Below are positions 27,952 to 43,314 of a stretch of DNA of 64,000 nt, piece after piece. The translations under genes were made by a program, and so were the position numbers. Every line of letters starts with the position of its first letter. Position 1 is the first letter of the stretch. The stretch comes from Asticcacaulis taihuensis (GTDB lineage: Bacteria; Pseudomonadota; Alphaproteobacteria; Caulobacterales; Caulobacteraceae): contig NZ_FMTS01000004.1 of NCBI RefSeq assembly GCF_900100255.1, positions 186,001 through 250,000 of the forward strand, written 5' to 3'. The notes beneath the pieces were generated by a model. That model was not told where the DNA came from. It was given only the letters and a program-made list of their open reading frames with translations, and did not search any database.

Positions 27952-28007
27952 ATGTCAGCCCCTGCTTTTGCTGCTATAAGACAGGACCAGTGAACCGGGA
28001 AAACAGA

Positions 28008-29531: not shown

Positions 29532-29538
29532 ACACAGC

Positions 29539-31302
29539 CTATTTCTCTTCATCCGGATAGGGGCCGACACCGCCGCCCGCGATAAAGGCGTCGATATGGG
29601 CCGTAAGCACCGGCAGCGGCACAGAGCCGAGTTCGAGCACGGCATCATGGAAGGCCCGGATGTTGAATTTATCGCCCAGCGCCTTTTCCGCCTTCGTGCG
29701 GGCATCCCGGATCGCCATTTCGCCGAGATAATAGGAAAGCGCCTGGCCCGGCCAGGAGATATAGCGGTCGACCTCGGTATCGATCTCGTGTTCGGACAGG
29801 GCAGTATTGTCACGCAGGTACAGGCGGGCCTGTTCGCGCGTCCAGCCCATCGCATGAATGCCGGTATCGACCACCAGCCGCGAGGCGCGCCATGCCTGGT
29901 AGCTGAGATAGCCGAAGCGGTCATAGGGCGTGTCATACATGCCCATCTCGACGCCGAGATATTCGCTATAAAGTGCCCAACCCTCGCCATAGGCCGAGAT
30001 ATAGGTCTTCTGGCGGAATTCCGGCAGGGACTTGTTTTCCAGGGCCAGCGGCATCTGGAAGGCATGACCCGGCGCCGATTCGTGCAGGGTCAGCGCCGTA
30101 AGCTGGAACAGCGGCCGCGACGGCAGGTCATAGGTATTGACATAATAGGCCCCCGGCCCGCCGCGCCCGGAGGTATAATAGGGCGCGATTTCCGGCGCCA
30201 CCGGCACGATGGCGAAGCGTGAGCGCGGCAGCCGGCCGAAATATTGCGACGCCTTGCCATCAAAGGTCTTGGCGATCCAGGCAGCTCGGTCGAGCAGATC
30301 TTGAGGCGTTTTGGCATAGAACTTTGGATCGCTGCGCAGGTAGGCCAGGAAGGCCGGCAAGTCGCCCTCAAACTTGACCTCTTTCATCACCTCCAGCATC
30401 TGGGCGCGGATGAGCGCCATCTGGTCGAGACCCAGTTGGTGAATCTGCGCCGGCGGCAGGTCCAGCGTGGTGAACTCACGGATCTTGGACTGGTAATAGG
30501 CCGCGCCATCCGGCAATTCGCTGGCGCCCAAAGCCATCTGCGCGTGCGGCACATAGTCGGTATCGAAAAAGGCCAGCAGGGTCTTGTGTGCAGGGATCAC
30601 CGCCTCGTTGATAGCCTTGACCGCAAGCGCTCGCAGTTCCGCCTGCTTTGCAGCCGGTATACTGGCGGGCATGGTGAGGAACGGCTTGTAATAGACGCTG
30701 TCCTCCGGCTTCTTGATATCGATCACCGTGCGGATCGAGGCGTCGCGGCCTTCCAGCGTCACCTGCGGCGCGGTGAAATGGCGCTCCAGACCGGCCTTCA
30801 TATTGACGATCTGCTGGTCGAAATAGCGCGGCATGTCGGAAAGCTGGCCGATATAGTTCCGGTAATCCGCCTCGGTGTGGAAATCGCTTTCCGTGATATA
30901 GGTCAGGTCGGCCCAGAAGCTGCTGTCGGAATTGACCGGCTTTTCATATTCGCGGAACTGCTTCGCGGCCACCAGTCCATCTATCTGCGTCTTATAGACC
31001 TGGTAATTGACCTGATTTTCCGCAGAAAGACTTTTGGTATCAATGGCGGCGAGCTTTGATTCCACATCCTGCCAGTAGACCAATTGCCTGCTTTGCGCCG
31101 CCGCGCTGACATCGGGCAGGTGCGCGGCCACCCCGGCATTGACATTGTTCTCATCGGTTTGTTGCAGGGATTGCCGCCAGGCCCATTCGGTCGTGTAGAT
31201 CGCCTTGAACTGCTCGTCCGATGGCCCAGCAAATGCCGGCAGGGCGGTGGTCATCAAAGGGATGGTCAGGCACAGTGCGGGCGCAAAACGGTAAACGGGC
31301 AT
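29539..31302 (-). CDS. Secreted DUF885 family protein (predicted zinc metallopeptidase)
   Basis: The 587-residue exported protein has a signal peptide ending at LPAFA (about residue 26) and a DUF885 domain. The HESAPGHAFQ motif near residue 385 fits the HExxxGH zinc-binding type of this family, and the later SAYGEGWALYSEYLG segment supplies a further conserved Glu. A peptidase role is therefore likely but the substrate is unknown. ATG at 31302 is preferred: GAGAGGA lies 8 bases upstream, whereas the TTG at 31308 is weak. The start codon is inside a long perfect inverted repeat (31294-31341), so translation may be regulated. Confidence 0.88.
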   Translation of the reverse strand: MPVYRFAPALCLTIPLMTTALPAFAGPSDEQFKAIYTTEWAWRQSLQQTDENNVNAGVAAHLPDVSAAAQSRQLVYWQDVESKLAAIDTKSLSAENQVNYQVYKTQIDGLVAAKQFREYEKPVNSDSSFWADLTYITESDFHTEADYRNYIGQLSDMPRYFDQQIVNMKAGLERHFTAPQVTLEGRDASIRTVIDIKKPEDSVYYKPFLTMPASIPAAKQAELRALAVKAINEAVIPAHKTLLAFFDTDYVPHAQMALGASELPDGAAYYQSKIREFTTLDLPPAQIHQLGLDQMALIRAQMLEVMKEVKFEGDLPAFLAYLRSDPKFYAKTPQDLLDRAAWIAKTFDGKASQYFGRLPRSRFAIVPVAPEIAPYYTSGRGGPGAYYVNTYDLPSRPLFQLTALTLHESAPGHAFQMPLALENKSLPEFRQKTYISAYGEGWALYSEYLGVEMGMYDTPYDRFGYLSYQAWRASRLVVDTGIHAMGWTREQARLYLRDNTALSEHEIDTEVDRYISWPGQALSYYLGEMAIRDARTKAEKALGDKFNIRAFHDAVLELGSVPLPVLTAHIDAFIAGGGVGPYPDEEK

Positions 31303-31341
31303 GGACAAGTCCTCTCATAAGTCAGACTGACCATGCCCGTT
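31294..31341 (-). promoter_or_regulatory. Inverted repeat that pairs the DUF885 start codon with its leader
   Basis: AACGGGCATGG (31294-31304) and CCATGCCCGTT (31331-31341) are perfect 11-bp inverted repeats 26 bp apart. In the minus-strand mRNA the upstream arm would pair exactly with the AUG CCC GUU start of the DUF885 gene, with the GAGAGGA ribosome binding site in the loop. A start-codon-masking hairpin or a dyad operator is suggested. The loop also contains TCAGTCTGA, a small palindrome. Confidence 0.55.
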
Positions 31342-31375
31342 GCCGCCCTCAATGCGCAACTCCTTATTTCAGATG

Positions 31376-33994
31376 TTACGACATCATATGCCGCAAGGTG
31401 AGATCACCGGCGACAGGCGCCGATCCACGCGGGGTAAAGGTGATGACCCGTGTCTCGCCCGGCAGCAGGTCGAAGAAGTTATCGCTGAACACACCGTCAT
31501 GCCCGTCGAAACCCAGGCACAGGTTCTTGACCAGTACGGGCGAGGTGACGGTGACAGCCACCGCACGCTCAAGCGGCTTCACACGGCTTTCGATTGCGGG
31601 CTTCGGCAATGCCAGATCCTTGACCGGCTTGAAGTAGACAATATTCTCCGACAGCAACTGATCCGCGTCCATAAGCCGGACGTGCAGCAGGGCGTTTTCC
31701 GGCGCCAGGCCATTCAAAAGGCCCGCCACATTGCCGGTAAAGACGGCCTCAGCGCGATTGGCTTTGAGCGTGAGCGGCACGGTCTGGACGCGCCCGCCCT
31801 CGCCCTTGAAGTCCACGGTCCTGATTTCGAGGGTTGCCACCCTGTCCTTCAGATAATCGCTGACCACAGTGACCGTCACCTTGTCGCCTTCCACAACCGG
31901 CGACACCAGCGCTGGCGCGAAAGCCTTCACCGCGAAATACTGCTGCGCCTTCCAGCGGCCGAAATAGTCGATGCTGCTCCACGAGGCGACCGGCCAGCAG
32001 TCATTGATCTGCCAGAACAGCGACCCCATGCAATAGGGCATACGCGCGCGGTGGGCTTCCATCGCCACCTTGATGCCCTCGGCCTGCAGGACCTGCCCGA
32101 CATAGAGGAACTGCTGGAAATCCGCGGGCACAACATAATCGCGCTGCATGTAGTTCTTAATCGTGCCGTTGCCGATCGAAGAGCGCTGGTGTGCCGCCAT
32201 CACCTCCGAAAAGATGTCGTAATCCTCCGGCTTCGTGTAGGCCTGCACCGTTTTGAATTCCGGGAAGGACTGGAAGCCGTATTCGCTCATGAAGCGGCCG
32301 ATATGGGTGCGGTAATCGGCAAAGGGCTTCTGGCCCCACCAGACATCCCAGTAATGGATATCGCCGGATTGCTTCGGTTGCGAGATATCAGAATGCTTGT
32401 CCCAGGCCGCCTGCGGTGAGGACGGCCAGTAAAAGCGCTGGCCGTCATGTTCGGCCACCACCTTCGGCAGGATATCGAGGAAGACCGCCTGATAGCCCGC
32501 CCACATCTCGTCGCGCTGGCTTTGCGTATATTTCTGCTTCCAACCCCAACCGCCTTCGGGCACATCGTTCTGCCAGGCGGCGTCGATCTCGTTATTGCCG
32601 ACCCACAGAGCGATGGACGGGTGATTGCGCAGGCGGCGGACATTATATATCGCTTCCTGCCTGACGTTTTCGAGGAAGGCGGCATCGCCCGGATACATGG
32701 AGCAGGCGAACATGAAATCCTGCCAGACCAGTATGCCGTTGTGGTCGCACAGGTCGTAGAAATAGTCCTCTTCGTAGGTGCCGCCGCCCCAGACGCGCAG
32801 CATGTTCATATGGGTATCGACCGCCGACTGCACCACGCGATCATAGACCTCATTGGTCACGCGCGGCAGGAAGCTGTCATTGGGGATATAGTTGGCCCCC
32901 TTCATGAAAACCGGCACGCCGTTCAACTCGACATAAAAGCTGCTGCCGTCGGCATCCGGCGTCTGAACGATCTTGATCGTGCGCAGGCCGGTGGTCACGG
33001 TCCGGCTGTCGGTGGCACTGGCAGTGACCACACGGCCGGTCAGGGAGTAGAGGTGCGCCTCACCCAGGCCGTTGGTCCACCACAGTTTCGGTTTGCTTAT
33101 GGCGACCTTCAGCGGAACCGTATTGACGCCCTTGACGAGCGTGACCGCCTGACGCGCCCGAATGGCCCCGTCCGTCTCGCTGGAGAGGTCGATCACCGCC
33201 GGCCCCGCCTGATCGGCCATGATCTCGAACATGATCGTCAGGGCCGCCTGATCCTTCGTCAGACTGTCCTGCACCACCTGCAAATCGCTGATTCGGGCAC
33301 CGCTCCATGCGCGCAAGGTGATGGGCCGCCAGATGCCAGAGGTGACGAAGCGCGGTCCCCAGTCCCAGCCATAGTGATACCCGGCCTTGCGGGTAAAGAC
33401 GCTCACCCGTTTCTCTCCCAGACCACCGTTTTCGCTTTGGTCATTGGGCGCCGGCGGATTGTAACCCAGGGCATCGAGCCGCTTCAGTCCTTCAGTGATC
33501 GGCGAGCGGAACAGGATGCGCAGGGCATTGGCACCGGCCTTCGCCTGCGGTTTTATGTCGGCGGTCCACTCGCGGAACATATTATCTGCGGAAAGCACCA
33601 GAACGTCGTTGAGCCAAACCTCGGCATAGGTGTCGAGGCCGGCGAAGACCAGTTCGATATGATCGTGCGCCAGGGTTTTTGCATCTAGTTCAAGCGTCGT
33701 GCGATATTCCCAGTCGACCTTGTCAATCCACTGCTGGTCGCGTTCATTGGTGCGGTAAAAGGGATCGGCAATCCGACCTGCCGCCAGCAGATCGGTATGG
33801 ACCGTTCCCGGCACAGTGGCAGCAATCCAGTCGTCCTTGCCCGCCTGGCGCATCTGCCAGCCGGTATTAATCCGCTGTTCGATTGGCATCCCGGCTGTCG
33901 CTTTCGCCTCTGTCTGCCCGGCCAGCAGGGCCAGCCCCAGCCCGGCGCCCGATGTTTTCAGCAACGCACGCCTGTGCGGATTGTTACGGCGCAT
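31376..33994 (-). CDS. GH2 beta-mannosidase, Tat-like signal
   Basis: The 872-residue enzyme hydrolyses terminal beta-mannosides from mannan or N-glycan type chains. The N-terminus MRRNNPHRRALLKTSG is a Tat-like signal. The GH2 layout follows: jelly-roll domain, immunoglobulin-like domain, then a TIM barrel with the acid/base Glu in WVGNNEID and the nucleophile Glu in MSEYGFQSFPE, followed by C-terminal Ig-like domains. The GNNE and SEYG motifs fit beta-mannosidases rather than beta-galactosidases. GGGAGA lies about 7 bases before ATG. A strong AT-rich inverted repeat sits immediately upstream. It ends 74 bases before the DUF885 gene on the same strand. Confidence 0.92.
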   Translation of the reverse strand: MRRNNPHRRALLKTSGAGLGLALLAGQTEAKATAGMPIEQRINTGWQMRQAGKDDWIAATVPGTVHTDLLAAGRIADPFYRTNERDQQWIDKVDWEYRTTLELDAKTLAHDHIELVFAGLDTYAEVWLNDVLVLSADNMFREWTADIKPQAKAGANALRILFRSPITEGLKRLDALGYNPPAPNDQSENGGLGEKRVSVFTRKAGYHYGWDWGPRFVTSGIWRPITLRAWSGARISDLQVVQDSLTKDQAALTIMFEIMADQAGPAVIDLSSETDGAIRARQAVTLVKGVNTVPLKVAISKPKLWWTNGLGEAHLYSLTGRVVTASATDSRTVTTGLRTIKIVQTPDADGSSFYVELNGVPVFMKGANYIPNDSFLPRVTNEVYDRVVQSAVDTHMNMLRVWGGGTYEEDYFYDLCDHNGILVWQDFMFACSMYPGDAAFLENVRQEAIYNVRRLRNHPSIALWVGNNEIDAAWQNDVPEGGWGWKQKYTQSQRDEMWAGYQAVFLDILPKVVAEHDGQRFYWPSSPQAAWDKHSDISQPKQSGDIHYWDVWWGQKPFADYRTHIGRFMSEYGFQSFPEFKTVQAYTKPEDYDIFSEVMAAHQRSSIGNGTIKNYMQRDYVVPADFQQFLYVGQVLQAEGIKVAMEAHRARMPYCMGSLFWQINDCWPVASWSSIDYFGRWKAQQYFAVKAFAPALVSPVVEGDKVTVTVVSDYLKDRVATLEIRTVDFKGEGGRVQTVPLTLKANRAEAVFTGNVAGLLNGLAPENALLHVRLMDADQLLSENIVYFKPVKDLALPKPAIESRVKPLERAVAVTVTSPVLVKNLCLGFDGHDGVFSDNFFDLLPGETRVITFTPRGSAPVAGDLTLRHMMS

Positions 33995-34003
33995 GATCTT
34001 CTC

Positions 34004-34036
34004 CCTGAATAAATATATTTGTTATATTTATTCAGG
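34004..34036 (-). promoter_or_regulatory. Perfect 14-bp inverted repeat at the GH2 ribosome binding site
   Basis: CCTGAATAAATATA (34004-34017) and TATATTTATTCAGG (34023-34036) are perfect 14-bp arms around a 5-base loop, ending 10 bases before the GH2 ATG. The AGG end of the downstream arm in the transcript merges with the GGGAGA ribosome binding site, so pairing could hide it. The gap to the Nudix gene is only 80 bases, so the element may also be a repressor operator at the promoter. Confidence 0.6.
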
Positions 34037-34074
34037 ATAACACACGGTCCCCCGCCGCGTCACGCGATTTTCGC

Positions 34075-35052
34075 CTACACTTCCAGCCGGAAGTACTCGA
34101 TAATATCGGCGTGATCCTCGAACATCTGGCCGCACATGGCATCCAGATCATCGATGGCGACCCAGTGCGCGCCGGCGGCGTCATCGGCGGCCTCGACCTT
34201 CGGCAATGGCCCTTCCGGAAAACGGAAATGGAAGGCATGGGTGATGGTGCGGCCGCGCGCCGATCGTTTCGGATAATCAAACACCTGCGAGGCCACCAGA
34301 TGTTCGGCGATATGAGCGGGTGTCAGGTCGAGATGCGTTTCCTCCGCCACTTCGCGCACCGCCGATTGCAGCAGGGTCTCATCCGGCTCGACAAACCCGC
34401 CCGGCAAGGCCCACAGCCCCACGCCTGGCTGACCGCCGCGCTTAATCAGAAGCAGGTGGCGGCCATGCTGGATCAGGGTGTCGCAGGTGACAAATATCGG
34501 CGGATAAGGCGCCACGCCCCAACTCAGTTTGTAATAATCGATATAGAGCTGTTCCTCGCGCAGGCGGTTAAAATCCGGCGTTGCGGCATAGGCGCGCAGC
34601 ATCTCCAGCACCGCCTTTGGCACCTGCGCCGCTACGGCGTCCGGCCCATCGCGCAGAAACGCGGCGCGCACCTGCTCGGCCCTTTCGGGCTCGGCCAGTG
34701 AATTGGCAAGTGGATGGGCCAGATCTTCCGCGCCCAGCCAGCCGCCGCCATCTTCCGGTAGAAGCGCCGTCACCTGATCGCAGACACCTCCCTGCAGGTC
34801 CGGCCGGTACAGATGATCGTGCGCATGGCAGAAATCCGCCCGATCCGCCAGCGGTCCCAACGCCGCCCGCAGCATGGCCTCGCGCATATGGGCCGGCCAC
34901 GGCATCTGGGTTGACGGCGCCCGGTCAGTGCCGGTCAGGACGATATGAAGATGTCCGCAGCGCCGGAAAGCCTCTTTCAGCCGGGCCAGATCAGCGGCCA
35001 GGGGCGGCGCGAAAGCGCCTGTGACAACACCATGCTGGAATTCGTAGATCAT
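34075..35052 (-). CDS. NadM-like protein: degenerate NMN adenylyltransferase domain plus Nudix hydrolase
   Basis: The 325-residue protein has the layout of bifunctional NMN adenylyltransferase/Nudix proteins. The N-terminal domain (about 1-160) begins GVVTGAFAPPLAADLARL where active enzymes have GRFQPFHxGHL, so the nucleotidyltransferase HxGH is missing. The C-terminal Nudix domain (about 190-320) has GGFVEPDETLLQSAVREVAEE, close to the Nudix box GX5EX7REUXEEXGU but with His for the late Gly. It may hydrolyse an NAD-related or other nucleotide. It follows the acyl-CoA dehydrogenase gene by 87 bases on the same strand and may be co-transcribed. Confidence 0.85.
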   Translation of the reverse strand: MIYEFQHGVVTGAFAPPLAADLARLKEAFRRCGHLHIVLTGTDRAPSTQMPWPAHMREAMLRAALGPLADRADFCHAHDHLYRPDLQGGVCDQVTALLPEDGGGWLGAEDLAHPLANSLAEPERAEQVRAAFLRDGPDAVAAQVPKAVLEMLRAYAATPDFNRLREEQLYIDYYKLSWGVAPYPPIFVTCDTLIQHGRHLLLIKRGGQPGVGLWALPGGFVEPDETLLQSAVREVAEETHLDLTPAHIAEHLVASQVFDYPKRSARGRTITHAFHFRFPEGPLPKVEAADDAAGAHWVAIDDLDAMCGQMFEDHADIIEYFRLEV

Positions 35053-35139
35053 CCTGTACGTCCTGACAGTTCGATAATCCGGATTATCTCCGATACAGAT
35101 TAAGCCTGCATTCCATCCAGGTAAAGCAACAGTATTTGC

Positions 35140-36288
35140 CTAAAGGCGTTCTTCCACGAAACGCTCTATCTTCGCGTTGTTCGTCAATAAGCGATAGTTG
35201 GAAATCATCACTCGAGCACTCAACATATCCCCCAGTATTTCGGAAAGGCTGTAAGTCCCGGCCTCAGCATAGCCGCGCATACCGACAAGACCCAGCGCGC
35301 CCAGGCATATCTCCGTCAGGTAATCGGAGCACAGAACCTTCAGGCGTTTGACATCGGCCGTGTGCGCCATTCCCATGCCGCCAACGCTTTCCCTGTTGTC
35401 AAAGGCGACAACCGCATCGCGGATCAGCGCGTTCATGGCATAGTGTTTGTCCACCAGCCGGCTTAATTCACTGCGCATCACATCCGCCACATCGCTTTCC
35501 GCCGGCGGGCTGGAAGAGATGCTGGCCCTCACCTTGTCCAGCGCACTGGCCGCCATGCCACTCCACAACGCCGCCCAGAAAATATGAATGGAAGGCGTCA
35601 TGGTATCTCTTGCAATGACCGGATAGGGATCAGGGAATAGCGCCTCCTCTGCAAACCTGACAGTCAGGGCATATGGCTTATTCATGATGCCCCGCATCCC
35701 CATGAAACCTACGGCGCGACCGGGCTGAAGGTCAGTATTCTTCATTTCGGCAGCAATAAGCATCTGTACTTTTTTACCATTTGGCTTGAGCCGCATGGCG
35801 CTGACCAGAATCAGTCCCGCATGATCCAGATAGGAGATATTGGGACTTTCCTTTGTGACGGTCAGTGTGTCGCCGTCTTCCTCAATCGTGCAGATCGATC
35901 CAAAAATATCACCGCCTACGCCCTTTTCGGAGGTGCCGCTGGCGACCAGCACCTGTTCACCCACCAGTCTTTGGAGAAGCTCACGGAAGAATGGCGTGTC
36001 GCCGCCGTGTCTGACCAGGGTCAGGGCCTGAGACATGTGCATGGCGTAAATCAGGCCGGCGGAACCGGACAAACGCGCGATATTGAAAGTAATCCGCGCC
36101 GTATCGCCAATCGAGAGGGCAGGCGCGTTTTCCTCATCCGACACGACCCACAAAAGCCGGTCCGCCCGCAGTTGCGCCAGTATAGCGTCGGTAAATGCCT
36201 TTTCGTCGCCGGGCTGCCGCGGCCCAAACGACAGACGTTCGCCAAGGGTCCGCGAAAGCTCAACCCGATCTCTGCTGGCCGTGGCCAT
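35140..36288 (-). CDS. Acyl-CoA dehydrogenase family flavoprotein, atypical active site
   Basis: The 382-residue protein has the acyl-CoA dehydrogenase fold: an N-terminal helical domain, a beta domain with VASGTSEKGVGGDIFGS (about 113-129), and a C-terminal helical bundle with FDNRESVGGMGMAHTADVKRL. The usual C-terminal RD..YEGT segment, which holds the catalytic Glu of short- and medium-chain members, is replaced by GDMLSARVMISNYRLLTNN. Catalysis may use another acid, as in some family members. Because the operon also encodes a carrier protein and an aminoacyl-type ligase, oxidation of a carrier-bound (amino)acyl group, as for PltE/PigA-type enzymes, is a sensible hypothesis. RBS GGGAGG precedes ATG. 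Confidence 0.85.
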   Translation of the reverse strand: MATASRDRVELSRTLGERLSFGPRQPGDEKAFTDAILAQLRADRLLWVVSDEENAPALSIGDTARITFNIARLSGSAGLIYAMHMSQALTLVRHGGDTPFFRELLQRLVGEQVLVASGTSEKGVGGDIFGSICTIEEDGDTLTVTKESPNISYLDHAGLILVSAMRLKPNGKKVQMLIAAEMKNTDLQPGRAVGFMGMRGIMNKPYALTVRFAEEALFPDPYPVIARDTMTPSIHIFWAALWSGMAASALDKVRASISSSPPAESDVADVMRSELSRLVDKHYAMNALIRDAVVAFDNRESVGGMGMAHTADVKRLKVLCSDYLTEICLGALGLVGMRGYAEAGTYSLSEILGDMLSARVMISNYRLLTNNAKIERFVEERL

Positions 36289-36372
36289 GATCGCCTCCCT
36301 GCTCTACGGACTGCCGTAAATTGCAGGCCGCCATTCAAATACCGCTGGTTGCGCCCCCAGGCAATGGCCGTA

Positions 36373-37905
36373 TCAGGCCGTTCCCTGCGACAAATCGTTG
36401 CGCAATCTTATGAAATCGGTCTTGCCGTTCGGCGTCAAAGGAAAACTGTCCATCATATGCCAGGCACGGGGCTGCATATGCTGCGACATCTCCTTGCGCG
36501 CAAACGTCTTGAGCGCCGGAACCGGTCCCGGAGCATCCGACCCTCCGCCTGCGGGCGCGATGACCGCCGCCACGATCATTTCGCCCATGATTTCATGCGG
36601 CACACCGACAATGGCGACATCACGCACCAGACCAGTCGCCCGGATCATGGTTTCAATTTCGTCCGGACTGACACGCACGCCCATGCACTTGATTTGCCGG
36701 TCCCGCCGTCCCTTGATAACCAGCAAACCCTCGGACGTCTTCCAACCGAGATCACCGGTGAAGACCACATTCGGCGCCGCAACTCCGGCGTAGCGCCACA
36801 GTGGATCGGGCCTCAGCACCTTTGCAGTCGCTTCCGGCGCATTCCAGTAGCCCATGAAGGCGCCCGTGCCGCGATGGATGATTTCACCGATTTCGTCCGG
36901 TTCGGCCTCCCGGCCGTCCTCACTCAGAATATTTAGCTGAACGCCAGGATAACCAAAGCCAACCGAATGGGGGTGCTCACCTGACCAGGCCACTGGCAGC
37001 CCGGCGCTGCGGTAGGTTTCCGTCATGCCGTAGTTGAGCGAGATGTCGCAATGGCCGAAAACCGCCCGGACATCGGCGTAAATCGCCGGCGGGATCAGCC
37101 CGCCTGTATTGGTCACCAGGCGCAGAGAACTCAGATCGGTTTCACGAAGCGGCGATAACCCGCGCAACAGAAGCGCGAAGATTGACGGCAGGCCGGCAAA
37201 GACAGTCGGCTTGTGCGCCTCGATGGCTTCGCACAGGGCAAACGGATTGCGCGCTTGGGGCAGAACCTGCGTCACGCCCAGCAGCACGGTGGAAAGAAGC
37301 TGGCCATAGCCATAGTCGAAGGCCCAGGGGATCGGGCACAGAATCCGGTCGTCCGCGCGCAGGCCAAGATGCGCCGCCACCATCCGGCATCCTGCGATCA
37401 GGGTGGCATGATTTTGCGTCACGCCCTTAGGCGGGCCCATCGATCCTGAGGTAAAGAAGATGGAGGCCGGCTCCAGGTCGTGCGTCAGGCCACGGGCCGG
37501 CGGTGACAGCGGCTCGGCCTTTTCAGTCCCCAGGACAAGGACCGGGCATTCCAACGTCCGTGTGGCAACCTCGGCGCATTTCTCATCGACGAACGCGACC
37601 CTGGGCCGGGTCACCCCCGCCGCATGGCTCAGGTGTGTCAGCGGTGCTTCGTCATTCACCAGCGCCACAATGGCGCCGATCATCCAGGCACCCAGAAGGG
37701 TGGCCGCCAGATCCGGTGAATTTCCGGCCCAGACGAGGCAACGGTCACCGGGCTGAACTCCGAAACGCACCATCAGGGCCGCCGCTTCCGCCGCCCTGAG
37801 GCGCAGGTCGCTGAAGCTTATGTGGCGGTCACCCTGGATAAGCGCCGGCGCCGCCCCCCTCTGTTCCGCCACGGCGTCAAAGCATCGCCACAAACCCGTC
37901 GTCAT
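36373..37905 (-). CDS. AMP-forming acyl/aminoacyl ligase
   Basis: A 510-residue ANL-superfamily enzyme that adenylates a carboxylic acid and transfers it to a thiol. Motifs in order: A3 FFTSGSMGPPKG (150-161), A5 NYGMTE, A7 TGDLG, A8 KGRRDRQIKCMG and A10 TPNGKTD with Lys495. ATG at 37905 is chosen because a GGTGA sequence precedes it and the decarboxylase ends 7 bases upstream; the 20-codon upstream extension is basic and unlike the family. The neighbouring carrier protein is the likely acceptor. Related ligases occur beside PLP decarboxylases and carrier proteins in exosortase-associated and butirosin-like loci. Substrate is probably an amino acid, but this is inference. Confidence 0.88.
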   Translation of the reverse strand: MTTGLWRCFDAVAEQRGAAPALIQGDRHISFSDLRLRAAEAAALMVRFGVQPGDRCLVWAGNSPDLAATLLGAWMIGAIVALVNDEAPLTHLSHAAGVTRPRVAFVDEKCAEVATRTLECPVLVLGTEKAEPLSPPARGLTHDLEPASIFFTSGSMGPPKGVTQNHATLIAGCRMVAAHLGLRADDRILCPIPWAFDYGYGQLLSTVLLGVTQVLPQARNPFALCEAIEAHKPTVFAGLPSIFALLLRGLSPLRETDLSSLRLVTNTGGLIPPAIYADVRAVFGHCDISLNYGMTETYRSAGLPVAWSGEHPHSVGFGYPGVQLNILSEDGREAEPDEIGEIIHRGTGAFMGYWNAPEATAKVLRPDPLWRYAGVAAPNVVFTGDLGWKTSEGLLVIKGRRDRQIKCMGVRVSPDEIETMIRATGLVRDVAIVGVPHEIMGEMIVAAVIAPAGGGSDAPGPVPALKTFARKEMSQHMQPRAWHMMDSFPLTPNGKTDFIRLRNDLSQGTA

Positions 37906-37912
37906 AAGTCCG

Positions 37913-39196
37913 TCACCCCTGGAGCGAGGTCTCAGCCATGCGCAGACGCCCCGTCCTGTCCACATCCGTCCAGTGATTGAGCGCGCTTTCCGTTGCGTCG
38001 ATCACCTCATTGCCTGCCAGCACGATTTCGGCCGGTTCCGGGTGGCTGATAAAGCGCGTAGGGCTGGCTGTCAGGCCATAGGCGCCGGAATTTTCAACCG
38101 CGATCACGTCTCCGACCCGAACCTCTGGCAACATGATGTCGGTGGCCAGCACGTCAATCGTCGTACAGAGCGGTCCGACCAGTGTGTATTTGTGTGGCAC
38201 AGCGTCGGGATTGGAGACATTCATCATGTGCCAGTTACGGCGGATAATCGTTCCCATCATGCCGCAGGCCGCCAGGTGATTGTTGAACCCGGCGTCGCAC
38301 AGGCGCATATCGACGCCGCGCGTGTGCTTTTCGCCCACCACCCCGGTCAGCAGCCAGCCAGCCGGACCGATCAACCAGCGTCCCATTTCGAGCACACAAT
38401 GTGAATGGGCGAAGCGCGGATCGCTTTTCAGGTCATCGATCAGCGGCAGCGCCAGTTCGGCAACCGCGGCGATATCGAGCGGCGCATCTCCGCCCCCGTA
38501 GGTCAGGCCGAAGCCGGAGCCGAACACCAGCTTTTCCGGACGGATATCACCATGCTTTGCCGCGCGGCGGAACAGCTCGATAAAGATGGCGAAATTCTCG
38601 GCTATCGCCGTGGGATTCAAGCTGTTGGTGCCGGAATAGATGTGGAAACCGATCAGATTCAGGTGCCTGAGCCCCAAAACCGTATCGACTGCCTCTTCGA
38701 GCACCTCGTCATCAATGCCAAACTGGCTGGCCCGCCCTGAAAAGCTGACGCCGAAATGGCGCGGGCCCGTCGACGGGTTGATGCGGATCAGTACCGACTG
38801 GCGCACCCCCAGTTCGCCGGCCCAGTAATCAGCACGCCTGGCTTCCGCCAGGGATTCAAGCACGAGTTCGCCCACCCCTTGAGCCACCGCGCCACGGATT
38901 TCAGCATCCCGCTTTGCCGGCCCTGAAAAGGTGATCCTCTCAGCCGGGCAGCCCGCCCTGAGCGCGCGCTCGACTTCCTTGTAGGAGGACACATCGAACG
39001 TCGCCACATGCGGCAACATACGGCGCAGCAGTTCGACATTCGGATTGGCCTTTACGGCGTAGCTGACGCCGAAATGCTGCCCGAACAATTGTTTCAGATG
39101 CTCGAAACGGCGGGTCAGTTCATCGGCGTCATAAACATAAAGCGGTGTGCCAAACTGCGCCGCCACGTGTGTCATCCGGCTTTCAAACGGCTGCAT
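37913..39196 (-). CDS. PLP-dependent decarboxylase (DAP/ornithine decarboxylase fold, BtrK-like)
   Basis: The 427-residue fold-III enzyme has the PLP lysine in VSYAVKANPN (Lys49), the phosphate-binding SGFG region near 227-230, FHIYSGTN near 185, EMGRWLIGPAG near 270-280 and the active-site GPLCTTID with Cys344. The usual CESGD is changed to CTTID, so it is unlikely to be ordinary lysA or ornithine decarboxylase. BtrK in butirosin synthesis is a relative that decarboxylates glutamyl-carrier protein, and similar enzymes occur in exosortase A loci. The direct linkage to a carrier protein upstream and a ligase downstream fits a carrier-bound amino-acid substrate. GGAG lies about 8 bases before ATG. 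Confidence 0.88.
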   Translation of the reverse strand: MQPFESRMTHVAAQFGTPLYVYDADELTRRFEHLKQLFGQHFGVSYAVKANPNVELLRRMLPHVATFDVSSYKEVERALRAGCPAERITFSGPAKRDAEIRGAVAQGVGELVLESLAEARRADYWAGELGVRQSVLIRINPSTGPRHFGVSFSGRASQFGIDDEVLEEAVDTVLGLRHLNLIGFHIYSGTNSLNPTAIAENFAIFIELFRRAAKHGDIRPEKLVFGSGFGLTYGGGDAPLDIAAVAELALPLIDDLKSDPRFAHSHCVLEMGRWLIGPAGWLLTGVVGEKHTRGVDMRLCDAGFNNHLAACGMMGTIIRRNWHMMNVSNPDAVPHKYTLVGPLCTTIDVLATDIMLPEVRVGDVIAVENSGAYGLTASPTRFISHPEPAEIVLAGNEVIDATESALNHWTDVDRTGRLRMAETSLQG

Positions 39197-39226
39197 GGAT
39201 CAGTCTCCGGTCTCGTCTTGAGTTTT

Positions 39227-39466
39227 TTAGGCCGCCGATTCCAGATAGGCAAGAATGCGTGAAATGCTGTCGAAGTTTTCAAGCTTCACATCGGTGGGGG
39301 CAATGGTGACGCCCCCTTCGTTTTCGATATAGGTCATCAGTGTCACGAGCGCGAAGCTGTCCACCAGACCGCTGCTGAACAACAGGGTATCGGCGGTAAT
39401 CTCTTCGCCATCAAGCGCCAGTTCTTCAACCAGAAAGTCACGCAGGTTCTCGTAGGTCAGGGACAC
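39227..39466 (-). CDS. Acyl (peptidyl) carrier protein
   Basis: A 79-residue carrier protein. The phosphopantetheine attachment serine is Ser37 in GLVDSFALVTLM (canonical DSL, here DSF). The N-terminal helix and acidic helix II match the family. GTG at 39464-39466 is the start, with TGGAG 7 bases upstream; an ATG four bases before is out of frame. It is the first gene of the operon carrier protein - decarboxylase - ligase - dehydrogenase. It is distinct from the fatty-acid carrier protein, which lies in fab clusters. A 4'-phosphopantetheinyl transferase is not encoded nearby and would come from elsewhere in the genome. Confidence 0.85.
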   Translation of the reverse strand: MSLTYENLRDFLVEELALDGEEITADTLLFSSGLVDSFALVTLMTYIENEGGVTIAPTDVKLENFDSISRILAYLESAA

Positions 39467-39684
39467 TCATAATCTCCATTAATGAAAAACGCGACAGGAT
39501 CGTCAAAGCGGGGTTCAACGGCACCTTAGCGGCTTTAAAATATGTCAGATCCGCTTTCATACACATCAGACGCCACAACCGTGTGACGCCACGAAATAAA
39601 CGCATCCGTTTTTACTGCAGTCAGAGCCTACATAACCGGCTCAAATTAAAAGTCGCCTAAAATTTTACCCTGACATACAATATC
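39467..39684 (-). promoter_or_regulatory. Intergenic region upstream of the carrier-protein operon
   Basis: The 218-bp, relatively AT-rich gap lies between the mug gene and the first operon gene, both on the minus strand. The carrier-protein promoter should be here. No clear hairpin terminator for mug or a strong -35/-10 pair was identified. Confidence 0.35.
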
Positions 39685-40224
39685 TTACTCTCCTGCAATT
39701 TCAATGCCACGCACGCGGTCGGCCAGATCCTGCCACACCGCCTGGTTCCAGAAGATACGCGCTTGCCCTGAAGGCGATGGCAGAACACAGATGCGGGTAT
39801 CGCCCACTGTCTCCGACTGAAAGCCCAGGGGGATATGGCCAGTCGACCGGCCCAGGAACACACTGGCGCCGGTCTTGCTGGTAAAGGCCAGGATTTTCGG
39901 CTGGTACTTCTCGATCTTTTCGCGCAGGGCGGTTGCATCCAGCGCCCCTTGCGGAAGCTGATTGTCATTGCCGAAATGCGCCTTGCACAGATCGGTCAGG
40001 CCGATGCCGTGGTCGAGCAGCCGGGCATAGTCCTGCGGTTTGATCCGCTCCGGCGTCAGGCCGGTATTATGCAGGGTTCGCCAGAAGAAATTGCCCGGAT
40101 TGGCATAATAGGCCCGCTGTTCAGCCGATACGCGTCCCAGGGCCGTGCCGCAGAAAACGACCTTCAGGCCCGGCATCAGCAGGTCGGGTACATGGCCGGG
40201 CGGCAGGGGACCAGACTTATCCAT
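39685..40224 (-). CDS. mug: G/U mismatch-specific uracil-DNA glycosylase (Mug)
   Basis: The 179-residue enzyme of the uracil-DNA glycosylase superfamily removes uracil or thymine from G mismatches and some etheno adducts. The first motif reads VFCGTALGRVSA (about residues 24-35), where E. coli Mug has GINPG; the region YYANPGNFFWRTL matches the Mug/TDG family, and the second motif is LPSPSGQA (canonical NPSG). The motif changes may alter substrate preference. ATG at 40224 begins MDKSGPLPPG. It is divergent from the SSS symporter gene, with 98 bases between starts. Confidence 0.9.
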   Translation of the reverse strand: MDKSGPLPPGHVPDLLMPGLKVVFCGTALGRVSAEQRAYYANPGNFFWRTLHNTGLTPERIKPQDYARLLDHGIGLTDLCKAHFGNDNQLPQGALDATALREKIEKYQPKILAFTSKTGASVFLGRSTGHIPLGFQSETVGDTRICVLPSPSGQARIFWNQAVWQDLADRVRGIEIAGE

Positions 40225-40322
40225 CTCAATTCCACTTCAAACAGGAAGCCACCTATACCACCGGCTTGCGCCCTTTGTGAATTCCGTTAGGCTGAACGAA
40301 AGAATACGGGGAAGCGGACACC

Positions 40323-41930
40323 ATGCCTTTGGCGCATAATCTGAGCTGGCTCGATCTGGGCGTCTTCAGCGTCTATATCGGCGGGCTCCTGTTGTTCGGC
40401 CTGATTGACCGCCACCGGCAGCTAAAGGCCCGCGAACACTTCCTGGCCGGGCAATCCGCCTCATGGCCGAAAATCGGCTTCGCGCTCTATGCCTCGACCA
40501 TCTCGGCCACTTCTCTCGTCGGCCTGACGGGCGCTGCCTATTCGCACGGCATTTCCGTCTTTAATTACGAATGGATGGCGGCCATCGTGCTGACCATCTT
40601 CTGCGCCTTCGTTCTGCCGACCTATATCAAATCGCAGGTCTTCACCGTGCCGGAGTTCCTCGAACTGCGCTACGGCAAATTCGTGCGCACCTATGTGTCC
40701 GGCCTCGGCGTGATCCTCGGCGTCTTCCTCGATGCGGCCGGTGGGTTGTTCGCCGGCTCCATCCTGTTCCAGATCCTGGTGCCAGACTGGCCGCTATGGC
40801 AGGTGTGCGCGCTGCTGGCCGTGCTCGCCGGCGGCTTCCTCATTGCCGGCGGCCTGCGCGCCGTCCTGATGGTCGAAGGCATACAGGGCGTGGTCATGGT
40901 CATTGTCGCCTCCGGCATCGCCTTCTTCACCTTCCGGGCGGTGGGCGGCGGCGATGTGATCGCCGGCTGGAGCCATACTCTCAAGGCCATCGACCCCACG
41001 CATCTCAAGCTGATCATGCCGGCGGATGACAAGGACATGCCGTGGACGGGCCTGCTCACCGGGGTGCCGCTGATCGGCTTTTATTTCTGGTGTACCAACC
41101 AGATCATGGTCCAGCGCGTTCTGGCGGCGAAATCGCTTGATCACGGGCGCTGGGGCTCGCTGATGGGCGGGGCGCTCAAGCTGACCAACCTGTTTCTGGT
41201 CATCCTGCCGGGCGCCGCGGCCCTGCTGCTCTTTCCCGCTCTGCCGCAACCCGACCGCGTCTTCTCGCACATGGTTTTTGAGGTCATGCCGCATGGCCTG
41301 ATCGGGCTGATCGTGGCGGCCTGCCTGATCTCCATCCTGGCCAACCTCTCCGGCATCTACAACTCGACCTCGACGCTTCTGACCATGGACTTTATCCGCA
41401 AGCTCAAACCGGACATGACCGATGGTCAACTGGTGCGCACCGGCCAGGCCATTACCGTGATCCTGATGGTCATCTCGGTCCTGTGGACGCCGCAGATCAT
41501 CCATTTCCAGGATACTTTATGGAAATATCTCCAGGCGGTGCTGTGCTATTTCGTGCCGCCGATCGCCGCCGTCTTTATCGCCGGCCTGTTTATCAAACGG
41601 GTCAATCGGGCCGGTGCCGCGGTGGGGCTGGTGGCCGGCACGATCACCAGTGTAATCCTGTTTGTCGACGCCTTCGCCTTTCATATCCTGCCGCTGCATT
41701 TTCTTGTGGCGGCCATCGTCATCTTCGCGGTCGCCTTTATCGCCCTGCTGGCCGGCAGCCTGACGGCGCCCGCGCCAGACCCCGCCACAGTGAGTCACCT
41801 GATGTTCGCAAAGGATGTCTGGCAGGCGGAGACGGCGCATCTGAAGACGGTAAAATGGTATCAAAACTACCGTTTTCTATCCGCGGCGCTCTTGCTGCTG
41901 ACCGGCGCCATCGTCATCTGGTTTGCATAA
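40323..41930 (+). CDS. Sodium:solute symporter (SSS/SLC5 family)
   Basis: A 535-residue inner-membrane transporter with 13-14 predicted helices. The N-terminal GLLLFGLIDRHRQLKAREHFLAGQSASWPKIGFALYA region and the ISATSLVGLTGAAYSHG motif in TM1-2 are typical of Na+-coupled sugar/solute carriers. Placement before the GH16 glucanase suggests it imports mono- or disaccharides released outside the cell, though SSS members also take up other solutes. GGGGAAG lies about 7 bases upstream of ATG. The gap to GH16 is 86 bases and contains TATAAC, a possible -10. Confidence 0.88.
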   Translation: MPLAHNLSWLDLGVFSVYIGGLLLFGLIDRHRQLKAREHFLAGQSASWPKIGFALYASTISATSLVGLTGAAYSHGISVFNYEWMAAIVLTIFCAFVLPTYIKSQVFTVPEFLELRYGKFVRTYVSGLGVILGVFLDAAGGLFAGSILFQILVPDWPLWQVCALLAVLAGGFLIAGGLRAVLMVEGIQGVVMVIVASGIAFFTFRAVGGGDVIAGWSHTLKAIDPTHLKLIMPADDKDMPWTGLLTGVPLIGFYFWCTNQIMVQRVLAAKSLDHGRWGSLMGGALKLTNLFLVILPGAAALLLFPALPQPDRVFSHMVFEVMPHGLIGLIVAACLISILANLSGIYNSTSTLLTMDFIRKLKPDMTDGQLVRTGQAITVILMVISVLWTPQIIHFQDTLWKYLQAVLCYFVPPIAAVFIAGLFIKRVNRAGAAVGLVAGTITSVILFVDAFAFHILPLHFLVAAIVIFAVAFIALLAGSLTAPAPDPATVSHLMFAKDVWQAETAHLKTVKWYQNYRFLSAALLLLTGAIVIWFA

Positions 41931-42016
41931 TCGGCCGCGTCTGCTAGGTTGCCGGCATAAGCCGAAAAGGCATTAGCGAAACACAAAAAATATAACGCTT
42001 TTTACAGGAGACGCCC

Positions 42017-42877
42017 GTGTCGCCCCTCGCCCGTTTCATGCCCCTGCTCGCCCTGCTCCTGCCGCTGAACGCCCAAGCCGATCCATCCACGCCGCCGGCC
42101 GCCGATTCCCTGGCCATTGACGAACCGGGCGGTGTACCGGCCGGCTACAGCTTGAAATGGTCAGATGAATTCAACACGCCGGGCCTGCCGGATGGCGGGC
42201 TGTGGACATACGACACCGGCGCCAACAAGCACGGCTGGGCCAATCATGAACTGCAATATTACAGCGATGCCCGCCCGGAAAACTCCCGCGTCGAGGATGG
42301 CAGCCTGATCATCGAGGCGCGCAAGGAAGACCTGAAAGACAAGTCTGACTGGGGCGGCCAGCACTACACCTCCGCGCGCCTGCTGTCGAAAAAGACCTAT
42401 ACATACGGCTATGTCGAGGTGCGTGCGCAACTGCCTTGCGGTCTGGGCGTCTGGCCCGCCATCTGGCAATTGCCTGCCACCAAGGCGCTCAAGTGGCCGG
42501 ATGACGGTGAAATCGACATCATGGAATATGTCGGCTGGAACCCGGACACAATCTACCATACCGTCCACACCGGACTCTACAACCACGTCAAGGGCACACA
42601 GAAAGGTGTTCTCAAGACCATGCCGGCCGTCTGCGGCCAGTGGCATACCTACAGCCTGTTGTGGACGCCGGACGAGATAAAGGAAGGCATAGACGGCCGC
42701 TTCTACTATCGCTTCCGCAATGAAGGCACCGGCAAGGGCGCCTGGCCGTTCGACCGGCCGCATGAGTTGATCCTCAACCTGGCGGTCGGCGGTGATTTCG
42801 GCGGCAAGACCGGCGTCGATGACAGCACCATGCCGTGGCAATTCAAGATCGACTATGTGCGGGTGTACCAGAAATAG
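42017..42877 (+). CDS. Secreted GH16 beta-glucanase
   Basis: A 286-residue exported endo-beta-glucanase-like enzyme (laminarinase or lichenase type). A signal peptide ends near residue 21 (LNAQA). The GH16 jelly roll carries the catalytic DGEIDIMEY, with nucleophile Glu165, Asp167 and acid/base Glu170; the WPAIWQLP segment nearby is characteristic. GTG at 42017 is the start, with GGAG 6 bases upstream. A strong terminator follows. It probably cuts a beta-1,3/1,4-glucan outside the cell and feeds the neighbouring transporter. Confidence 0.93.
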   Translation: MSPLARFMPLLALLLPLNAQADPSTPPAADSLAIDEPGGVPAGYSLKWSDEFNTPGLPDGGLWTYDTGANKHGWANHELQYYSDARPENSRVEDGSLIIEARKEDLKDKSDWGGQHYTSARLLSKKTYTYGYVEVRAQLPCGLGVWPAIWQLPATKALKWPDDGEIDIMEYVGWNPDTIYHTVHTGLYNHVKGTQKGVLKTMPAVCGQWHTYSLLWTPDEIKEGIDGRFYYRFRNEGTGKGAWPFDRPHELILNLAVGGDFGGKTGVDDSTMPWQFKIDYVRVYQK

Positions 42878-42879
42878 AC

Positions 42880-42915
42880 CGCTTCCTGAGTCTCGGGACT
42901 CAGGAAGCGTATTTT
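42880..42915 (+). terminator. Rho-independent terminator after GH16
   Basis: CGCTTCCTGAGTC (42880-42892) and GACTCAGGAAGCG (42897-42909) form a perfect 13-bp stem around a TCGG loop, followed by TATTTT. It starts 2 bases after the GH16 stop, so it ends the symporter-GH16 transcript. Confidence 0.93.
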
Positions 42916-43314
42916 CCCCGCATATGCCGGCAGCCCGATGATCGTTTCGCTGGTCATCGGACCGGTTTATCCGGGGCTTGTGACGCGTGAGACACATAGC
43001 CCCGGCAAGGCCGGCTGTAAATAAACTCTGACAATGTTGTCAGCCGGCGCCACAGCCTGATGGCAATACCAATTTATTGAAATGACTGCATTTTTGCATA
43101 AATATCACAGGAAATTTTTCTATTTTTCATAGAGTTGCCGCTGCGTTTCCGTTTGGCAGGACAACCAGACCACGCCAAAAAGACAGCCATCACGCACCGG
43201 GGCTGAAATTTTCCATTTCTGTTCAAATTCTTAGCCTGTCTCGCCCGCTAGTCCATCGCTTGCCCTGCGGCCAACCGCGTGTTAGCGTCACATTCTTGGC
43301 ATCTGGGGGCCTGC
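42916..43314 (+). promoter_or_regulatory. Regulatory region upstream of halogenase 2 and lacI
   Basis: This 399-bp stretch holds no supported gene. It contains a LacI-type palindrome at 43029-43042, then an AT-rich segment (43070-43140) likely to include the promoter, and a GGGGG-type ribosome binding site before the ATG at 43315. The gap resembles the region before the TonB-dependent receptor at 25032, which also has a palindrome and an AT-rich tract. Confidence 0.5.
43029..43042. promoter_or_regulatory. LacI-family operator-like palindrome upstream of halogenase 2-lacI
   Basis: TGACAATGTTGTCA is symmetric in 12 of 14 bases and matches TGGCAACGTTGTCA at 24742. It lies about 270 bases before the halogenase 2 start. 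The lacI gene is the second gene of this transcript, so autoregulation is likely. Confidence 0.6.

What the first reader, a model, noticed from the sequence alone, without database searches (positions are those of the whole stretch)
35140..39466. Four-gene operon for a carrier-tethered amino-acid pathway
A carrier protein (Ser37), a fold-III PLP decarboxylase with a non-standard CTTID active site, an AMP-forming ligase and an acyl-CoA-dehydrogenase-like flavoprotein are read in the same direction with short gaps. Ligase plus carrier plus BtrK-like decarboxylase is known from butirosin and from exosortase-associated loci; adding a dehydrogenase suggests a new sequence: load amino acid, decarboxylate or oxidise on the carrier, release. 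No transferase, thioesterase, exosortase or NRPS/PKS gene is next to it. The product could decorate a surface polysaccharide or be a small metabolite.
Basis: partly seen in the sequence, partly recalled or inferred. Interest (0 to 1): 0.75.

Follow-up and report, generated by a model that had tools for sequence, protein, structure and literature searches.

The report
Carrier-bound amino acid tailoring operon
Four neighbouring genes, acquired as a block, probably load an acidic amino acid onto a small carrier protein, remove CO2 and oxidise it; several relatives carry the same set with a Dlt-type machine that fixes amino acids onto the cell surface.

Summary
Confirmed: four intact minus-strand genes at 35140-39466 encode a carrier (Ser37), a BtrK-like decarboxylase, an AMP ligase and an ACAD-fold protein. 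They form a unit: all four occur together in 4 other genomes, and two short contigs show parts. Here they are a ~4.7-kb insertion between two genes adjacent in a congener. The ligase's pocket segment hits only VinN in the PDB, so the trio resembles VinN/VinL/VinO: load an acidic amino acid by its side chain, decarboxylate it on the carrier. The ACAD-fold protein lacks the catalytic Glu of dehydrogenases at both known positions; 21 of 22 distant relatives sit beside amino acid:carrier-protein ligases, so the family probably acts on aminoacyl carriers. Five relatives also have an MBOAT (DltB-like where tested), an SGNH-like protein and an FxYxxF (DltX-like) microprotein: a Dlt-type export route. 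The window genome has no MBOAT or exosortase but holds a GNAT-like gene found in 2 of 199 family genomes, both with this set. All reactions are inferred. New variant of a known kind.

The parts
39227..39466 (-). stand-alone carrier protein, 79 aa, phosphopantetheine site Ser37 (DSF)
   Evidence: PP-binding 6.3e-9; NCBIfam best ACP_for_OlsHI, then DltC, all far below cut-off; 48-57% identical to carriers in L001-L004 and L052
37913..39196 (-). fold-III PLP decarboxylase, BtrK-like, 427 aa
   Evidence: best PDB match BtrK, 2j66 2.4e-58 and 7ru7 2.8e-58; TIGR03099 342 bits, cut-off 478; tree
36373..37905 (-). AMP-forming ligase with VinN-like pocket, 510 aa (the ORF could start at 37965)
   Evidence: AMP-binding 2.8e-69; pocket segment hits only VinN in the PDB at E 1e-5; D197, Y198, R299, K495 invariant in the 5 ligases aligned, window included
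35140..36288 (-). ACAD-fold protein without the dehydrogenase glutamate, 382 aa
   Evidence: fold match Z 34.4-37.1 to the top 50 ACAD-fold entries; Ile at both catalytic-Glu positions; distant kin beside aa:CP ligases
35053..39718 (.). approximate extent of the inserted block relative to congener G490
   Evidence: window 28008-35052 and 39719-43482 align to G490 stretches about 70 bases apart
34075..35052 (-). flanking NMN adenylyltransferase/Nudix-type gene, not part of the set
   Evidence: NUDIX 1.6e-19, PRK05379 models below cut-off; neighbour of the UDG gene in G490
39685..40224 (-). flanking Mug/UDG-type glycosylase gene, not part of the set
   Evidence: PF03167 2.3e-16; the NMNAT/Nudix gene lies beside it in 4 of 16 other congener loci

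Best explanation
A horizontally acquired operon for tailoring an amino acid while it is bound to a carrier protein. The ligase activates the side-chain carboxyl of an acidic amino acid (aspartate-like favoured, glutamate possible) and loads it on the carrier. The BtrK/VinO-type enzyme removes the alpha-carboxyl, giving a beta-alanyl- or GABA-type carrier. The ACAD-fold protein then oxidises the aminoacyl group, more likely at the amine or C-N bond than by alpha,beta-desaturation. In relatives the group is exported and esterified to a surface polymer by a Dlt-type machine (MBOAT, DltX-like microprotein, SGNH-like protein). In this organism, which has no MBOAT, an unlinked GNAT-like protein is the best candidate to pass it to an acceptor. 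Shown: genes, motifs, co-occurrence, insertion, missing Glu, absence of MBOAT matches. Inferred: every reaction, flavin binding, the substrate, the order and the acceptor.
For: All four genes together in G000, L052, L002, L003, L004. Insertion against G490. The ligase's pocket segment hits only VinN at E 1e-5 (2.4e-10 and 2.7e-10), with D197-Y198 over VinN D-F and TETYRS over TECKRI without a gap; D230, F231, K330, R331 and the short loop are named as VinN's key features (PMC11253843, passages). VinN/VinL/VinO load and then decarboxylate 3-methylaspartate on an ACP (PMC11284099, passages). BtrK is the decarboxylase's best PDB match. 21 of 22 distant ACAD-like loci have an aa:CP ligase homologue next to them; the one tested matches Bll0957 at 3.4e-98. 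MBOAT, SGNH-like gene and FxYxxF frame in relatives; the two MBOATs tested match the DltB model. GNAT-like gene in 2 of 199 family genomes, both of which hold the close ACAD-like gene.
Against: In whole-length searches the ligase's best PDB match is linear gramicidin synthetase, and CmiS6 ranks just above VinN. VinN's Lys330 is Tyr298 here. The window genome has no MBOAT match, so transfer cannot be by the Dlt route as known. The GNAT-like gene is about 125 kb away, matches Pfam only below cut-off (0.0071) and no NCBIfam model, and is in 3 of the 7 genomes with the set. The Dlt-type cassette also exists without the ACAD-like gene (L125), so oxidation is optional. No reductase or phosphopantetheinyl transferase was searched for.
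Confidence: 0.5

Rival explanations
1. The ACAD-fold protein is a dehydrogenase after all: it makes an alpha,beta-unsaturated (4-aminocrotonyl- or 3-aminoacryloyl-type) carrier thioester, using a base at another position.
For: Fold matches are mostly acyl-CoA dehydrogenases and include carrier-acting ColB1 (7xp7) and AnaB (4irn); top profile matches include a short-chain and a butyryl-CoA dehydrogenase.
Against: No Glu at either known position in 19 of 19 family members; the family's other branch sits with aa:CP ligases, a group reported for Gly, Ala or Ser, and a glycyl group cannot be desaturated at alpha,beta.
Confidence: 0.2
2. In this organism the set makes a small released metabolite, not a surface decoration; the carrier product is hydrolysed or passed by the GNAT-like protein to a soluble amine.
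For: No MBOAT match in the genome; G533 and the window genome share the GNAT-like gene; a tandem alpha/beta hydrolase lies beside the G533 set.
Against: Five relatives have the MBOAT/SGNH-like/FxYxxF genes; the hydrolase was not searched for in the window genome.
Confidence: 0.25
3. Remnant: the set arrived without its export half and does nothing useful here.
For: Relatives in the same ACAD clade have the MBOAT cassette, this genome has no MBOAT match; the GNAT-like gene lies at another site.
Against: All four frames are intact with conserved key residues; G533 has the same four genes without the MBOAT cassette beside them (its one MBOAT, L070, lies elsewhere and is 33% identical to that of L003), and both genomes have the GNAT-like gene.
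Confidence: 0.12
4. An exosortase-A-associated ligase/decarboxylase pair, as the NCBIfam names suggest.
For: Best NCBIfam models are TIGR03098 and TIGR03099.
Against: Both score well under cut-off (320 of 592 and 342 of 478 bits); no exosortase match in the genome; the decarboxylase groups apart from the TIGR03099 members over cut-off that were put in the tree.
Confidence: 0.03

Closest known systems
VinN / VinL / VinO of vicenistatin biosynthesis (and FlvN)
   Same: stand-alone ligase, stand-alone carrier and PLP decarboxylase acting in turn on a carrier-bound acidic amino acid; matching ligase pocket (PMC11284099 passages)
   Different: no polyketide synthase noticed beside it; Tyr in place of VinN Lys330; extra ACAD-fold protein
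BtrK/BtrI of butirosin
   Same: decarboxylase family; best PDB match, entry 7ru7 is named L-glutamyl-[BtrI acyl-carrier protein] decarboxylase
   Different: butirosin's carrier is loaded by an ATP-grasp enzyme (recalled), here by an AMP-forming ligase
Dlt pathway (DltA, B, C, D, X)
   Same: ligase plus carrier; in relatives also MBOAT (DltB-like where tested), SGNH-like protein and FxYxxF microprotein
   Different: adds a decarboxylase and an ACAD-fold protein; window genome has no MBOAT match
Amino acid:carrier-protein ligase loci (Bll0957 type)
   Same: homologous ACAD-fold protein beside the ligase (21 of 22 distant loci) and a carrier homologue in 17 of the 22 four-kb stretches
   Different: loading by an aminoacyl-tRNA-synthetase-like enzyme; window-type decarboxylase not seen in those scanned; DUF1839 in several
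Exosortase-A-associated ligase/decarboxylase (TIGR03098/TIGR03099)
   Same: related ligase and decarboxylase
   Different: below cut-offs, separate decarboxylase clade, no exosortase match

Membership tests
VinN-type beta-amino-acid adenylation enzymes | Asp binding the amino group, followed by a bulky residue (D230-F231) | tested here: met
   D197-Y198 align to VinN D-F; both invariant in the 5 ligases aligned
VinN-type beta-amino-acid adenylation enzymes | Lys330-Arg331 in a shortened loop | tested here: inconclusive
   Arg kept (R299), Lys replaced by Tyr298; no gap against VinN in the loop
VinN-type beta-amino-acid adenylation enzymes | activates an acidic or beta-amino acid and loads a stand-alone carrier | not testable with these tools
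   needs an enzyme assay
BtrK/VinO-type carrier-dependent decarboxylase | fold-III PLP decarboxylase with PLP Lys and C-terminal Cys motif | tested here: met
   Pfam domains; KANPN, CTTID and NSGAYGL aligned to BtrK
BtrK/VinO-type carrier-dependent decarboxylase | acts on carrier-bound substrate | not testable with these tools
   gene adjacency only
Acyl-CoA dehydrogenase | ACAD fold | tested here: met
   Z 34.4-37.1, 346-372 residues aligned; model mean pLDDT 84.8
Acyl-CoA dehydrogenase | catalytic Glu at the MCAD-376 or IVD-254 position | tested here: not met
   19 of 19 family members have Ile/Val at the first and Ile/Val/Ser/Cys/Ala at the second; 10 of 10 IVD-type ACADs have Glu at the second. 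The first position was placed through their GAGT-type motif; no control with Glu there was in the alignment
Dlt pathway (window genome) | DltB-type MBOAT | tested here: not met
   0 PF03062 matches in the genome at E 0.001; the same search found one in 6 of 6 other genomes
Dlt pathway (window genome) | DltX-like FxYxxF microprotein | tested here: inconclusive
   none among 557 short ORFs of the window; rest of the genome not searched
Dlt pathway (relatives) | MBOAT + SGNH + FxYxxF microprotein together | tested here: met
   L002, L003, L004, L005, L073, L125; SGNH is weak: GDSL matches under cut-off in L002 and L004, none in L003, the rest by similarity to L003
Exosortase-A-associated TIGR03098/TIGR03099 | score above curated cut-off and exosortase in the genome | tested here: not met
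   320 of 592 and 342 of 478 bits; no PF09721 match
Class D flavin monooxygenases (KijD3, DnmZ, DszC) | ACAD fold without catalytic Glu, using O2 and a reductase | tested here: inconclusive
   3m9v (KijD3, name recalled), DnmZ, nitrososynthase and DszC are among the top 11 profile matches; oxygenation and reductase not tested

The most novel reading that the evidence does not exclude
A Dlt-type surface-modification pathway in Gram-negative bacteria that first remakes its amino acid on the carrier: an acidic amino acid is loaded by its side chain, decarboxylated to a beta- or gamma-amino acyl group and then oxidised at nitrogen by a glutamate-less ACAD-fold enzyme shared with the orphan amino acid:carrier-protein ligase systems. 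The window lineage has swapped the membrane transfer machine for a GNAT-like protein.
Probability: 0.3. Interest if true: 0.82.

Novelty: new variant of a known kind. Interest (0 to 1): 0.62.

Why it matters
[quoted passage not shown] The shared ACAD-fold protein gives a direct, testable next step for those ligases, and the relatives predict a new amino-acyl decoration on a Gram-negative surface polymer.

Tried and rejected
Promoter/terminator scan of the locus: 1 and 3 sites, no more than shuffles give. GC content of the block is like its flanks, so composition does not show the transfer; the empty site does. Plasmid search: 66 records matched, all under 60% identity and the 30 listed at 33.8% or less, so no plasmid with the close gene was seen. 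Exosortase membership rejected. The first ACAD model (6 sequences, mean pLDDT 75.9) was replaced by a 19-sequence model (84.8); fold matches cannot tell dehydrogenase from oxygenase, since the top 50 entries lie within Z 34.4-37.1 and hold both. Literature searches listed no paper whose title or abstract describes this gene set; they cover only the held open-access library, listings were capped, and I read passages of four papers only. The VinN structure paper is not held; the Mocibob papers on aa:CP ligases were not looked up.

Counts, selections and weak points. The 22 distant ACAD-like loci are those at E 1e-20 or better (7; 15); weaker matches were left out. In one search ten ordinary ACADs were picked out of the 20 listed, namely those with GAGT/GGTS/GGSS-type C-termini; L018, with FEGA, was left out, so the control set is of the IVD type by choice. 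In one search, 12 of 16 other congener loci showed no NMNAT/Nudix gene within the 1.5 kb held. The GNAT-like and ACAD searches drew separate samples of the family (199 and 299 genomes), which need not nest. L128 and L124 have long branches in the tree. L058 repeats the place of L054; L071/L078, L072 and L075 repeat places of L005, L003 and L004. The FxYxxF frames of L002, L004 and L073 were found by looking at the gap on purpose after the ORF scan missed them.
Full report
The observation. Reading the minus strand from 39466 to 35140 gives four intact genes: a 79-residue carrier with Ser37 in DSF, a 427-residue fold-III PLP decarboxylase, an AMP-forming ligase and a 382-residue ACAD-like protein. 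Alignment with relatives puts the ligase start at 37905. The best PDB match of the decarboxylase is BtrK (2.4e-58), whose Cys motif is CTPED against CTTID here.

A real unit, acquired as a block. The genome-contig scan gave five loci with a close relative of the ACAD-like protein (45-58% identical). Of these, L002 (Octadecabacter algicola), L003 (Rhodobacterales MAG) and L004 (Pseudomonadota MAG) hold all four genes; L001 (Caulobacteraceae MAG) and L005 (Rhodobacterales MAG) are short contigs with three and two of them. G533 (L052), from the same family as the window genome, holds carrier, decarboxylase, ligase and ACAD-like gene in the same order. The set is rare: ACAD-like matches under E 1e-100 are in 1 of 385 class genomes and 2 of 299 family genomes; with a profile at 1e-40 they are in 2 of 345 genomes of the family of G682. 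All 16 family genomes that match at 1e-20 are listed, and the own genome is the only one of its genus among them. In congener G490 the two flanking genes are 91-92% identical at protein level and their matches lie about 60 bases apart; at DNA level the window carries about 4.7 kb where G490 has about 70 bases. Three more congeners have the flanking genes as neighbours; 12 others do not within the 1.5 kb held.

The ligase. With the pocket segment as query, two PDB sequences pass E 1e-5, at 2.4e-10 and 2.7e-10 (3wv4 and 3wvn); both entries are VinN (table in PMC11253843). Residues D197-Y198 fall on VinN D-F, and TETYRS on TECKRI with no gap. Over the whole length the best match is linear gramicidin synthetase; CmiS6 (5jjp, 1.3e-40) and VinN (5.2e-40) are the best stand-alone ligases that I recognise, and VinN is the only one of these at 1e-60 in the profile search. 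A review says that VinN binds its beta-amino group with D230, and that F231, K330, R331 and a loop one residue shorter set its specificity (PMC11253843, passages). A second review says that VinN loads 3-methylaspartate on VinL and that the PLP enzyme VinO then decarboxylates it on the carrier (PMC11284099, passages). Ligase, carrier and decarboxylase here match that trio. The Lys of the basic pair is Tyr here, so the substrate is not fixed; an acidic amino acid is the best guess because a BtrK-type decarboxylase needs a free alpha-carboxyl after loading (chemistry of the family, recalled).

The ACAD-fold protein. The 19-sequence model has mean pLDDT 84.8 and the ACAD fold (best Z 37.1, 369 residues at 3.1 A; the top 50 entries lie between 34.4 and 37.1). 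ColB1 (assembly-line-tethered cysteine dehydrogenation) and AnaB (prolyl carrier oxidase) are among them, and the monooxygenases DszC and TdsC too. In an alignment with ten IVD-type ACADs, which all have Glu at the 254 position, none of 19 family members has Glu there or at the MCAD-376 position; the second was placed through the GAGT-type motif, without a control that has Glu there. A profile search ranks a short-chain and a butyryl-CoA dehydrogenase first, then 3m9v (KijD3, name recalled), with DnmZ, nitrososynthase and DszC in the top 11. The tree splits the family into two fully supported groups, six window-type and thirteen distant. Of 22 distant loci, 21 have an amino acid:carrier-protein ligase homologue in the 1.5 kb on either side, and 17 a carrier homologue; the one ligase tested in the PDB matches Bll0957 at 3.4e-98, the others are 46-66% identical to it. 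The exception (L038) has the tandem hydrolase only. A 2022 review lists Gly, Ala and Ser for such ligases and says that the role of the loaded carriers is unknown (PMC9437257, passages). The common element is an aminoacyl carrier; since a glycyl group has no beta carbon, oxidation at the amine or C-N bond explains both branches better than desaturation. This is inference, and the substrates of these 21 ligases were not tested.

Transfer. L003, L004 and L005 have an SGNH-like gene and an MBOAT gene between ligase and ACAD-like gene; L002 has both upstream on the other strand, and what look like exopolysaccharide genes downstream (names by eye). Pfam finds MBOAT in L002 and L003; the SGNH call is weak, with GDSL matches below cut-off in L002 and L004 and none in L003. 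The MAG of L001 has the pair on another contig (L073, SGNH cut by the contig end). L125 has carrier, decarboxylase, sulfotransferase, ligase, SGNH-like and MBOAT genes but no ACAD-like hit in 19.4 kb, and its decarboxylase groups with those of the window set (98/92). The two MBOATs tested (L003, L125) match the DltB model at 166 and 180 bits, under its cut-off of 375. A paper on MBOAT-SGNH systems says that DltB takes its amino acid from a carrier protein and hands it to a Tyr in the FxYxxF end of the microprotein DltX, and that other such pathways lack carrier and DltX (PMC12148441, passages). All six MBOAT loci looked at for it (L002, L003, L004, L005, L073, L125) have a frame ending in FxYxxF between the SGNH-like and MBOAT genes; in L002, L004 and L073 it was seen in a plain frame translation, not in the ORF scan. 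Among 10,998 short ORFs of the fetched loci and the window, the only six that end so are the microproteins of L003, L005 and L125 or second copies of them. So the relatives carry a Dlt-type export route.

The window genome differs. It has no PF03062 match, though the same search finds one in 6 of 6 other genomes tested, and no exosortase. The gene beside the G533 carrier gene is GNAT-like (PF00583 0.0071, below cut-off; no NCBIfam model). A homologue 59% identical lies in the window genome at contig 13, 95767-96402, about 125 kb from the operon and outside the window. It is in 2 of 199 family genomes, and both have the set. It is also in G683, beside the ACAD-like gene of L004, and absent at 1e-5 from the other four genomes with the set and from six others. 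Its site in G490 holds other DNA. Of the seven genomes with the set or part of it, five have the MBOAT cassette and three the GNAT-like gene, and each has at least one; G533 also has an unrelated-looking MBOAT elsewhere (33% identical to that of L003, other neighbours). I take the GNAT-like protein as the likely transfer enzyme here; nothing tests this.

Verdict. Real, intact, rare, moved as a block, and a new variant: VinN/VinO-type loading and decarboxylation combined with an unusual ACAD-fold protein and, in relatives, with Dlt-type export. I saw no description of it in the listings of the held library, which leaves most subscription papers unsearched.

Noticed in passing
L007-L013, L037-L051 (distant ACAD-like loci) and their longer stretches L053-L068: A recurring neighbourhood of carrier protein, ACAD-like protein and aa:CP ligase, in several cases with DUF1839, a tandem alpha/beta hydrolase and a GH2-like protein (last name by eye): a possible way to the unknown function of aa:CP ligases.
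   Followed up: partly
L125:4936-11411: Carrier, decarboxylase, sulfotransferase, ligase, SGNH-like, FxYxxF microprotein and MBOAT without an ACAD-like gene: the Dlt-type cassette exists without that step.
   Followed up: partly
L126:9457-12574 and L127:7136-10750: Ligase, carrier and decarboxylase of a neighbouring clade inside what look like exopolysaccharide loci, without an MBOAT hit.
   Followed up: partly
L057:9733-10689 against L153:3980-6166: The site of the GNAT-like gene is variable: G490 holds about 2.2 kb of other sequence where the window genome has it.
   Followed up: no
window 27990-29531 and 43279-44898: Two flavin-dependent halogenase-like genes, one beside a TonB-receptor-like gene at 25032-27884 (names recalled by eye, no family search run).
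   Followed up: no
L002:5561-6478, L003:2963-3901: A sulfotransferase (PF13469 in L003) sits between decarboxylase and ligase in these loci but not in the window.
   Followed up: no
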